DNA from: a bacterium
Lineage (GTDB): Bacteria > SZUA-79 > Acidulodesulfobacterales > Acidulodesulfobacteraceae
Reading direction: 5' to 3'
Length of the DNA: 33,297 nt
Assembly (NCBI GenBank): GCA_021828445.1
Contig: JAJZJD010000003.1
Span: 1-33,297 of the forward strand
In this document: positions 29,571 to 32,229 of the stretch, one piece after another
How the letters are laid out: each line of letters starts with the position of its first letter
Numbering within the stretch: the stretch's first letter is position 1
Notes under the pieces: model-generated
Databases searched by the model: none
Seen by the model: only the letters and a program-made list of their open reading frames with translations
Told to the model about the DNA's origin: nothing
Position numbers and translations under genes: made by a program

Positions 29571-29599
29571 ATTATATAGAATAAAATTAAACGTGTCAA
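29571..29599 (-). promoter_or_regulatory. Consensus sigma-70 promoter for the replisome-organizer-like gene
   Basis: Minus strand TTGACA (29599-29594) - 17 nt - TATAAT (29576-29571). Confidence 0.7.
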
Positions 29600-29619
29600 T
29601 TAGTCAATTATTTTTTTAC

Positions 29620-29647
29620 TTGACAATTAATAAATTTGATATATAAT
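29620..29647 (+). promoter_or_regulatory. Sigma-70 promoter for the excisionase-like gene
   Basis: TTGACA (29620-29625) - 16 nt - TATAAT (29642-29647). Confidence 0.65.
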
Positions 29648-29674: not shown

Positions 29675-29881
29675 ATGGATAAAGACATTTTAATTATAAA
29701 CGAAGCCGCAACTTTTTTAAGAGTTTCTGCTACCACTTTAAGACGCTACATAGCTTCAAGGCAGATAACTTTTTATAAACTTCAAGGCAAAATTCTTTTT
29801 AAAAAAACCGATTTAGAAAAATTTTTAGAGTCTAAAAGAGTAGAAAGTTTCGATGAATTTAGAAATAAAAATATTTTGTAA
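29675..29881 (+). CDS. Excisionase/MerR-like HTH protein
   Basis: 'LIINEAATFLRVSATTLRRYIASRQITFYKLQGKILFKKTDLEKFLESKR'; ATG at 29675 gives the family-like start. Confidence 0.85.
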   Translation: MDKDILIINEAATFLRVSATTLRRYIASRQITFYKLQGKILFKKTDLEKFLESKRVESFDEFRNKNIL

Positions 29882-30116
29882 ATTTATATATTTTTTACTG
29901 CAGATAATCCCGTTCGCTCATTCAAAAGCGAAAATATTTAATATTGATGATTCTATTGCTATGCAGGGTAGAAAAAAGTCATCCGGAAGAACGTTGTGTC
30001 AATGGAAGAGCAGGCCACTTACTGATAACACACCGCAATTTTATTTCGTCTTGATAATACATAAACAATTGCAAGCGTCAGTCTAAAAGTAGTTCTTCTA
30101 AACCAATGAAAAATTA

Positions 30117-30138
30117 AAGCCGATTAATTCGGTTTTTT
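30117..30138 (+). terminator. Likely Rho-independent terminator
   Basis: AGCCGA-TTAAT-TCGGTT stem followed by TTTTT. Confidence 0.55.
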
Positions 30139-30151
30139 TAAGTAAGTTTAA

Positions 30152-30405
30152 GAAAGTCCGCAGATTAAAATCGTCAGTCCGCATTGGTACTGCTGATTTT
30201 TTAATTGACTTTCAAGCGGCTTTCTCTATGTTAAGCACATAGAAAAAGCCGCAAAATCGTGAATAATTTCGTTAGTTGCGCCTAAACGGCGGTATTAACG
30301 GACACGAACACAATATATAAGTTCCGAAGTTATACGGATTTGCCTTCCGTCGCATATTGCGAAAACAGGTTTTGTATTTAAAACCGGTGACGGTGTATTC
30401 GGAAC
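30152..30405. other. Noncoding region with serial inverted repeats (candidate structured RNA and/or recombination site)
   Basis: Hairpin A 30152-30213 (GAAAGTC...GACTTTC), hairpin B 30216-30252 (16-bp arms, one mismatch, loop TAAGC), multibranch C 30321-30405 (GTTCCGAA...TTCGGAAC enclosing three small hairpins). No ORF of note inside. Confidence 0.6.
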
Positions 30406-30438
30406 GCATAATAAGACTTACAAATAGTAGAGGCAAAT

Positions 30439-30741
30439 ATGGGCAAATTAACAGAATTTTATAAACAGCACCGCCGGTTATTCTTGGCGCAAAAGCACCA
30501 GAATACCTTTAAAACCCAAAAATTCAGGGACATGGCGGCTATTAAATTCTTTTCATTTTGCGAATCTCAAAATTTACTCCACACGGACGGAATACGCAAA
30601 AATCAAGTAATAAAAGATTTCTTCAATACTGAAGAAATGCTTAATAAATCAAATGAAACCCGCCGGAAATATTTTTTGGTAATTAAAGAGATTTACCAGA
30701 GGTTCTTTAAAATAAATATCGGAAACGAGGTTTTAAAATGA
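30439..30741 (+). CDS. Small protein resembling a tyrosine recombinase core-binding (SAM-like) domain
   Basis: 'TFKTQKFRDMAAIKFFSFCESQNL...NKSNETRRKYFLVIKEIYQRFF'; ATGA overlap with the downstream recombinase. Confidence 0.5.
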   Translation: MGKLTEFYKQHRRLFLAQKHQNTFKTQKFRDMAAIKFFSFCESQNLLHTDGIRKNQVIKDFFNTEEMLNKSNETRRKYFLVIKEIYQRFFKINIGNEVLK

Positions 30742-31736
30742 GCGGTAAAGCTATGAGCATAAAAAACGAATCTAAAATATCTTTTTTATCAAAAGAAATA
30801 TCGGAATTTATCAAGCGCGGTTCTTCTACCGCCGAAAAACTTTCCGCTACTTTAAAAGAAATTAAATCTCAAACCGGCATTAAAACCTTAAAGGATATGG
30901 AGCAGTCCCACATTAACGATATGATTACAGGATTAAAAAATAACGTCTCATCGGGAAATATGTCTTTATCTAACGCCAATTCTTATATTTCAAGTATTAA
31001 TAATATCGTTAGGTATATAGGCAGAGACGATTTGTACGTTATTAAAGCATCTGACTTCGGATTATCTCGGAACATATCCGAAAAAGACGGAATAAATAAA
31101 GAAAATACGAGAGAATCCGCCTCAGCATTTAAAACTTGGCTTAACGAAAAATACGCAGAAACAAACGATTTACGCTATGCGGCGATAAAGCATGCAGTCA
31201 GTATTCAATCGATTAATTTAAGATTAAGAGAGAGCCTCCAAATCAAACTATTAAATAAAGACTTGTCCGAAAATATTTTAAAAGTATCGGCAAAAGGCGA
31301 CGGTTCTAAAAACAGCCGCGAAAGAGAAATTAAATTAAATCCCGAACAAAAAGCGCTTCTTTTGGAAGCAAGAGCTTTTTTAAAAGAAAATCATCTTAAA
31401 AATCTCAATATTGGCACTATAAAACAAGGACGAAATTTTGCGAACAATATCTTAAAATCTTTTCGCACAGAAACCAACCTGTATTTTCACTATCACGGCG
31501 AAAGGCACTGGACAGCGCATGAGGCTTATAAGGAAGCGTGGAAGTCAAAAGGATACGATAATATCAAGTGCAGGGCAAGAACGGACGAGAGCAAAGCCGA
31601 GTGGATTAGCAGCATATTGGAAACGACCGGACTGTCCAAATCGGAATTTCAAACTATGGATAAAGAAATCAGGCAGGAAATATCGCGAAACCTCGGACAT
31701 GAAAGGATTGAAATAACAAATAGGTATTTGGGGTAA
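30738..31736 (+). CDS. Tyrosine recombinase/integrase
   Basis: Candidate catalytic residues: Arg in 'SINLRLRESLQIKL', H-x-x-R in 'HYHGERHWTAHEAY', 'LGHERIEITNRYLG' with terminal Tyr. Confidence 0.8.
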   Translation: MSGKAMSIKNESKISFLSKEISEFIKRGSSTAEKLSATLKEIKSQTGIKTLKDMEQSHINDMITGLKNNVSSGNMSLSNANSYISSINNIVRYIGRDDLYVIKASDFGLSRNISEKDGINKENTRESASAFKTWLNEKYAETNDLRYAAIKHAVSIQSINLRLRESLQIKLLNKDLSENILKVSAKGDGSKNSREREIKLNPEQKALLLEARAFLKENHLKNLNIGTIKQGRNFANNILKSFRTETNLYFHYHGERHWTAHEAYKEAWKSKGYDNIKCRARTDESKAEWISSILETTGLSKSEFQTMDKEIRQEISRNLGHERIEITNRYLG

Positions 31737-32143
31737 TGAAATTGAAAAATCTATCAAATAATATTGACCCATTCAGGATAAGAGTTAATAGAGAGATTTT
31801 AAAAACAGAAGCTACCAAAAAGTTTATCGAAAATCAAATTAGACATATTCTTACAGGAGAAAAGGTTAAAGTATTGAAACGAAACCCTGGCCATATAACA
31901 TTATGCGAAGTGGAAACAATGCCGCCGCCTGAACTCATAAAAGCTATATCGAAGTATTGCAGCGAAAAAGTCATCTTTAAACTAAAAGACGAAAATGAGG
32001 CCGCTTTCGAGTATTGGAATGAGTGGGAAAGAAAAAAGTTAAAGAAAATTAAAAATAATGAGAAGAGAAAAGCAAAAAGGAAGAGAAAAAGAATTTTAAA
32101 GGCAATATATCGAGGCTTTGCCCCGAACCCCACTTCTTTTTGA
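31736..32143 (+). CDS. Hypothetical basic protein
   Basis: Start overlaps the recombinase stop (TAATG); Lys/Arg-rich C-terminus (KKLKKIKNNEKRKAKRKRKRILK). Confidence 0.6.
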   Translation: MKLKNLSNNIDPFRIRVNREILKTEATKKFIENQIRHILTGEKVKVLKRNPGHITLCEVETMPPPELIKAISKYCSEKVIFKLKDENEAAFEYWNEWERKKLKKIKNNEKRKAKRKRKRILKAIYRGFAPNPTSF

Positions 32144-32156
32144 TGTCAAAAAGAAG
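32133..32156. repeat. Perfect inverted repeat, 11-bp arms, 2-nt spacer, overlapping a stop codon
   Basis: CTTCTTTTTGA-TG-TCAAAAAGAAG. Confidence 0.9.
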
Positions 32157-32229
32157 CAAAAACCAGTTGGGTATTGAAAGGAAATAAAAATAAATATTTT
32201 AGGCGCGCTCGTTGGCGCGCAGGCGTATT

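What the first reader, a model, noticed from the sequence alone, without database searches (positions are those of the whole stretch)
30152..30405. Dense, unexplained structured noncoding region in front of a recombinase operon
Three fold-prone modules sit in tandem in an ORF-free stretch. Hairpin A is 62 nt, closed by GAAAGTC/GACTTTC, with a second AT-rich stem inside. Hairpin B is GCGGCTTTCTCTATGT-TAAGC-ACATAGAAAAAGCCGC (15 of 16 pairs). Module C (85 nt) is closed by GTTCCGAA/TTCGGAAC and encloses ACGGA-7nt-TCCGT, CGCA-TAT-TGCG and GGTTTT-6nt-AAAACC. They lie between a likely terminator (~30117-30138) and the first operon gene (30439). This could be a leader/regulatory RNA, an element-encoded ncRNA, or a folded-DNA attachment or origin site. 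I do not recognise it as a known family.
Basis: partly seen in the sequence, partly recalled or inferred. Interest (0 to 1): 0.62.

Follow-up and report, generated by a model that had tools for sequence, protein, structure and literature searches.

The report
Structured RNA in DNA-transfer gene module
The folded stretch is a real, evolutionarily conserved RNA (with a second one just upstream) in front of a relaxase-like gene pair of a mobile island, the place where the Salmonella island SGI1 encodes a small RNA that it needs in order to move between bacteria.

Summary
The folds are real: the region folds far better than shuffles (z about -7), and 18 homologous sites in 12 genomes of one bacterial family keep them. 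In 30257-30405, 27 of 39 base pairs show changes on both sides (0 of 500 shuffles); in hairpins A and B, 22 of 32 do. G-U outnumber A-C pairs 40 to 3, hairpin ends carry UUCG, GNRA and CUUG loops, and loop lengths vary: the folded molecule is the + strand, most likely RNA. No Rfam family matches.

Every site lies just before a 100-aa gene whose predicted fold is a tyrosine-recombinase core-binding domain. The 'recombinase' behind it is homologous to MpsA, the atypical relaxase of SGI1 (hhalign 99.3%). Two complete relatives sit in tRNA genes beside a separate integrase, so this region is not the attachment site. SGI1 encodes an essential transfer RNA (sgm-sRNA) at the corresponding place.

Best reading: a mobilization module whose RNA works like sgm-sRNA. 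Module and conserved structure are shown; transcription, function and oriT position are inferred. No sequence or fold homology to sgm-sRNA was found.

The parts
29620..29647 (+). sigma-70-like promoter (12 of 12) before the hth gene; possible start of a transcript through RNA1 and RNA2
   Evidence: consensus scan only
29675..29881 (+). hth: small excisionase/MerR-type DNA-binding protein
   Evidence: PF12728 E 2.9e-13, TIGR01764 E 5.4e-10
29897..29988 (+). RNA1, 5' domain: hairpin plus two-part stem-loop whose loop pairs with the 5' end (pseudoknot CTGCA/TGCAG)
   Evidence: arms of 11 loci complementary within loci and less so between versions; pseudoknot replaced by GCTCAC/GTGAGC in G021:C25
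29989..30110 (+). RNA1, 3' domain: long-range helix around conserved AGRCC-xCTT ... GGTCT-AAAGTA-GTT
   Evidence: sequence comparison and folds of 12 loci; pairs not counted formally
30117..30139 (+). intrinsic terminator-like stem with T run, stem sequence changes in step between loci
30152..30213 (+). RNA2 hairpin A
   Evidence: hairpins A+B: 22 of 32 pairs with changes on both sides, shuffles at most 14
30216..30252 (+). RNA2 hairpin B, near-invariant stem, loop of varying length
30257..30307 (+).
   Evidence: helices 1-3
30321..30405 (+). RNA2 module C: closing stem, inner helix and two hairpins with GNRA/UUCG/CUUG-type loops
   Evidence: helices 4-7
30439..30741 (+). p100: MpsB-like protein, core-binding domain of tyrosine recombinases only
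   Evidence: AlphaFold model pLDDT 85; best solved folds IntI, Cre, XerA (TM 0.61, 0.63, 0.56); sequence comparison with MpsB negative
30738..31736 (+). rec332: MpsA-like, tyrosine-recombinase-type relaxase with R162, H253, R256, H321, Y330 conserved
   Evidence: hhalign to SGI1 MpsA 99.3%, E 1.9e-20; alignment; fold
31736..32143 (+). p135: basic protein of unknown function, next gene in most relatives

Best explanation
The region encodes a structured RNA (RNA2), preceded by a second structured RNA (RNA1), in the mobilization module of a tRNA-integrated, probably mobilizable island. The 'recombinase' is an MpsA-like relaxase and the 100-aa protein an MpsB-like DNA-binding partner. RNA2 most likely works like the sgm-sRNA of SGI1: it is read in the direction of the relaxase genes, ends next to their start codon, is cut or read out of a longer transcript, and is needed as an RNA factor for conjugal transfer, probably in the assembly or delivery of the relaxase-DNA complex. 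The terminator between RNA1 and RNA2 would set how much full-length RNA is made. Shown here: conserved + strand, RNA-like structure; constant linkage to p100; MpsA homology; tRNA integration by another enzyme in relatives. Inferred: transcription, role in transfer, complex assembly. The transfer origin is expected close by, perhaps in the RNA1 region, but was not located.
For: Covariation far above controls; G-U 40 against A-C 3 on the + strand; stable RNA tetraloops swapped between loci; all 18 sites directly before p100; rec332 homologous to MpsA, p100 with the MpsB-type fold; separate integrase and tRNA repeats in complete relatives, so the second recombinase needs another job; VirB4-type ATPase in the same genome. 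In SGI1 an RNA of about 230-277 nt encoded between oriT and the mpsA start, same strand, with a terminator-like repeat near its promoter, is essential for transfer (PMC9299015).
Against: No transcript data. Covariance models of RNA2 do not match the SGI1 region or other MpsA plasmids. p100 and MpsB are not related by sequence and the gene order is swapped. The SGI1 RNA core itself folds only weakly above shuffles (z -1.95). No oriT identified; an apparent shared oriT motif was not significant.
Confidence: 0.55

Rival explanations
1. RNA1 and RNA2 are a cis-acting leader: RNA1 with its terminator is an attenuator and RNA2 a 5' UTR element that controls expression of the p100-rec332-p135 operon.
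For: Same strand, directly upstream of the first gene; terminator between the two RNAs; no conserved terminator between RNA2 and p100. In G026:C166 the closing stem contains the likely ribosome-binding site, 5 nt before the ATG.
Against: Distance from RNA2 to the start codon varies from 5 to about 80 nt, so a common ribosome-site switch is unlikely. The nearest studied system rejected control of mpsAB as the role of its RNA (PMC9299015). RNA2 is larger than most simple leaders.
Confidence: 0.25
2. The structure serves as single-stranded DNA: the transfer origin and leading region of the island, folded when the strand is nicked and transferred.
For: Origins for tyrosine-recombinase-like relaxases lie just upstream of the gene and consist of inverted repeats (PMC6414798, PMC8152469); SGI1 oriT folds at z -8.9; only one strand appears to be selected.
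Against: Many G-U pairs, and UUCG/CUUG loops typical of RNA; about 255 nt plus RNA1 is far more than the 125-186 bp minimal origins; the intrinsic terminator covaries; stems tolerate complete sequence change, while protein-read origins conserve sequence.
Confidence: 0.15
3. It is a recombination site of rec332 (attachment, resolution or inversion site).
For: Tyrosine-recombinase sites are inverted repeats often next to the gene; fold and catalytic residues are intact.
Against: The spacer of the best palindrome (hairpin B) varies between loci from 3 nt upward, whereas such sites need a fixed spacer; complete relatives are bounded by tRNA repeats beside another integrase; the structure is much larger than a core site.
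Confidence: 0.04

Closest known systems
sgm-sRNA and mobilization module of Salmonella Genomic Island 1 (PMC9299015, PMC6414798)
   Same: MpsA homologue; small core-binding-domain partner; RNA-coding stretch of similar size on the same strand, ending beside the first relaxase-module gene; terminator-like element upstream; island integrated by a separate integrase.
   Different: No sequence or covariance-model match between the RNAs; partner gene before instead of after the relaxase; second structured RNA here; oriT not located here; target is tRNA, not trmE.
Other tyrosine-recombinase-like relaxases: MobK of pIGRK, TcpM of pCW3 (PMC8152469)
   Same: Tyrosine-recombinase catalytic domain used for mobilization; origin upstream of the gene.
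   Different: No partner protein of the MpsB kind reported for MobK and TcpM; no RNA reported in what was read.
Int-alpA and other element-associated ncRNAs, and bridge RNAs of IS110 elements (from memory, a lead only)
   Same: Structured RNA next to a recombinase gene of a mobile element.
   Different: No Rfam match at all; IS110 recombinases are unrelated enzymes; no search for target-matching loops was made.

Membership tests
MpsA-type tyrosine-recombinase-like relaxase | Homology to MpsA over the catalytic domain | tested here: met
   hhalign 99.3%, E 1.9e-20, 256 columns; tblastn 25% over 88%, E 5e-9
MpsA-type tyrosine-recombinase-like relaxase | Conserved catalytic residues and tyrosine | tested here: met
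   R162, H253, R256, H321, Y330 invariant in 14 relatives
MpsA-type tyrosine-recombinase-like relaxase | Small partner with a core-binding-domain fold (MpsB) | tested here: inconclusive
   Fold matches IntI/Cre/XerA core-binding domains although E-values are weak; no sequence match to MpsB
MpsA-type tyrosine-recombinase-like relaxase | Nicks DNA at oriT and is needed for transfer | not testable with these tools
   needs experiment
sgm-sRNA | Encoded just upstream of the relaxase genes on the same strand | tested here: met
   18 of 18 sites before p100
sgm-sRNA | Sequence or fold homology to the SGI1 RNA core | tested here: not met
   models R1 and R2 find nothing in the SGI1 region
sgm-sRNA | Transcribed and essential in trans for transfer | not testable with these tools
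   no expression data
Known Rfam family | Score at or above the gathering threshold | tested here: not met
Island attachment site | Island boundary with direct repeats at this region | tested here: not met
   in two complete relatives the repeats lie at tRNA genes; the window's own island is cut by the contig end
Integrative mobilizable element | Own integrase and tRNA repeats, relaxase, no own transfer apparatus seen | tested here: inconclusive
   integrase and repeats in relatives; mobilization not shown

The most novel reading that the evidence does not exclude
Relaxases of the tyrosine-recombinase type generally work with a dedicated, large structured RNA as a component of the DNA-transfer complex; this family would be the first example outside SGI1-like islands, with a fold of its own, so RNA-assisted conjugation would be an old and widespread mode.
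Probability: 0.3. Interest if true: 0.85.

Novelty: new variant of a known kind. Interest (0 to 1): 0.64.

Why it matters
SGI1's sgm-sRNA is, in the papers found here, the one RNA reported as essential for a tyrosine-recombinase-like relaxase, and how it works is unknown. This locus gives a second, remote system with dozens of compensatory changes, hence a dependable secondary structure, two RNAs, and an MpsA homologue beside them. It makes the question 'is an RNA part of these relaxase complexes?' testable by structure-guided mutation, and adds two RNA families absent from Rfam. MpsA homologues occur on 133 plasmid records, 97 of them typed as non-mobilizable, so the same parts may be overlooked elsewhere.

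Tried and rejected
Rfam at gathering and relaxed thresholds: nothing. Recombinase in viral contigs: none, as single protein and as profile. Attachment-site reading: rejected by tRNA repeats. Recombinase core site in hairpin B: rejected by the variable spacer. Shared oriT motif with SGI1 (TCTATGC...GGTAGA...CGGAAGCC): attractive, but not significant by gapped alignment or chained exact matches (30 of 300 shuffles reach it and ordinary windows score as high); not claimed. Pairing between RNA1 (CGGAAG) and RNA2 (CTTCCG): dropped, because G026:C166 changes RNA2 with local compensation while RNA1 stays. SGI1 RNA core: folds only weakly (z -1.95), and an alignment with Aeromonas relatives was too poor for a consensus. 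MpsB against p100 by sequence: no. PDB sequence search with the rec332 profile: no hit. An antisense immunity RNA of the phage P4 kind was considered; no support was found.

Full report
1. Observation. The stretch 30140-30440 folds at -96.8 kcal/mol, 6.8 standard deviations below shuffles; 30151-30405 alone gives z -7.0. The minus strand gives a similar value, so energy alone does not tell the strand. Rfam has no match.

2. Relatives. The recombinase-like protein rec332 has relatives (about 35-92% identity for the full-length ones) in genomes of the same family only; record titles name uncultured bacteria, one of them a deltaproteobacterium. About 340 nt before the upstream partner gene p100 are 70-95% identical among 14 loci. 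A DNA search of the nearest relatives found no convincing solitary copies.

3. Covariation. A covariance model from six close sequences of 30257-30405 finds 16 loci, two of them divergent. On that alignment 96.6% of cells pair and 27 of 39 pairs show changes on both sides (shuffles 5.6 on average, none of 500 as high); sliding the partners leaves 3 to 6 such pairs. The alignment was fitted to the model, which favours it, but whole stems are replaced: GTTCCGAA/TTCGGAAC becomes GTTTAATGTTTC/GAAACATTAAAC in G023:C104, and TCGTG/CACGA becomes CCAGGT/ACCTGG in G022:C16. Hairpins A and B: 22 of 32 pairs, shuffles at most 14. A scan of 146 genomes gives 18 sites in 12 genomes, all in the one family. 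Two were not found through rec332; both again precede p100, truncated in one and without a following rec332 in the other. So the RNA tracks p100.

4. RNA rather than DNA. On the + strand G-U pairs outnumber A-C 40 to 3 in 30257-30405. In hairpins A and B the count is 29 to 17, with most of the 17 attributable to one conserved C-A mismatch in hairpin B. The last hairpin of module C is capped by GTGA, GAGA, GCAA, TTCG or CTTG in different loci, common stable RNA tetraloops; another hairpin carries GAAA or GCAA. Hairpin B keeps its stem while its loop changes length, unlike a binding site with a fixed spacer. These are arguments, not proof; single-stranded DNA is not excluded.

5. A second RNA. 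Between the hth gene and the terminator lies another conserved stretch (29897-30139): a hairpin, a two-part stem-loop whose loop pairs with the 5' end (a pseudoknot), a long-range helix and a covarying terminator. Arms from 11 loci are fully or almost fully complementary within each locus and less so between versions; the pseudoknot changes from CTGCA/TGCAG to GCTCAC/GTGAGC in G021:C25 (arms picked by hand). An AT-rich -10-like box precedes the conserved 5' end in most loci, weak evidence in AT-rich DNA. In the window sequence alone this RNA does not stand out energetically.

6. What the genes are. rec332 is barely recognised by family libraries, but its two best-covered hits with good E-values among plasmids and phages are Salmonella records. 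The first was identified as the SGI1 mobilization region by the published P5 promoter, TTGACG-16-TAATAT (PMC9299015). Profile comparison with that MpsA: 99.3%, E 1.9e-20. p100 has a good model (pLDDT 85) whose nearest solved folds are tyrosine recombinases, IntI, Cre and XerA, over the length of p100, as described for MpsB (PMC6414798), though sequence comparison fails. rec332 models as a whole tyrosine recombinase.

7. The island. Relatives carry a second, ordinary integrase, in several cases beside a tRNA gene. Two are complete: a 48-bp tRNA-Arg repeat bounds 9.6 kb in G026:C166, and a 49-bp tRNA-Val repeat bounds 13.6 kb in G015:C110, a distant relative with 35% identity. So rec332 need not be the integrase there and the RNA region is not the boundary. 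Behind rec332 or p135 the genes change between islands: primase and DUF3987 protein, type III restriction-modification, KwaB-like protein, HerA-like ATPase with a D12 methylase, GajA/Old-like protein. A VirB4-type ATPase occurs in the same genome and in five relatives, so a helper is conceivable.

8. Mechanism. In SGI1, MpsA, MpsB, oriT and sgm-sRNA form the mobilization module. The RNA core (positions 1,295-1,572 of the module) lies between oriT and mpsA, comes from a longer transcript with a terminator-like repeat near its promoter, acts in trans, and does not appear to act by switching on mpsAB (PMC9299015). Strand, size, position against the genes and an upstream terminator correspond here. 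I therefore hold that RNA2 most likely works like sgm-sRNA (0.55), ahead of a cis leader (0.25), single-stranded oriT DNA (0.15) and a recombination site (0.04). It cannot be filed as sgm-sRNA: no common sequence or fold was found.

9. Limits. One family of bacteria, metagenome-derived contigs, no transcripts, oriT not located, hand-picked arms for RNA1, rough E-values for the covariance models.

Noticed in passing
29897-30139: A second conserved structured RNA with a 5' pseudoknot and an intrinsic terminator, absent from Rfam; in three relatives its 3' module (AGGCCTCTT ... AAAGTAGT) appears duplicated.
   Followed up: partly
L104, L107, L108, L109, L124-L129 (plasmids): MpsA homologues occur on 133 plasmid records; MOB-suite of these non-mobilizable. 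They may be overlooked mobilizable plasmids.
   Followed up: no
L032 13802-20553, L045 2403-7569, L063 1205-8883, L041 5406-7766: Cargo behind the mobilization module in relatives looks like anti-phage defence: type III restriction-modification, KwaB-like, GajA/Old-like, HerA-like ATPases.
   Followed up: partly
L049 7600-8128: The leader of a distant relative (35% identity, G015:C110) also folds very strongly (z -6.1) but is not matched by the RNA2 model; it may hold another version of the RNA.
   Followed up: partly
L103 (OX345320) and L105 (OR851053): A Salmonella 'plasmid' record holds the SGI1 mobilization region, and a record filed as a Salmonella phage shows the same MpsA match; both look like pieces of the island.
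   Followed up: partly
29571-29647: Two perfect sigma-70-like promoters point away from each other between repN (-) and hth (+).
   Followed up: no
32110-32160: The 3' end of p135 and the following bases (GAGGCTTTGCCCCGAACCCCACTTCTTTTTGATGTCAAAAAGAAGC) look like a small repeat element with an inverted repeat that reaches into the gene.
   Followed up: no
L055 3353-4194 and L056 8921-9757: Genomes of two different genera carry islands identical over at least 1,500 bp upstream of p100, with the same internal stop after rec332 residue 182; this suggests recent transfer.
   Followed up: no
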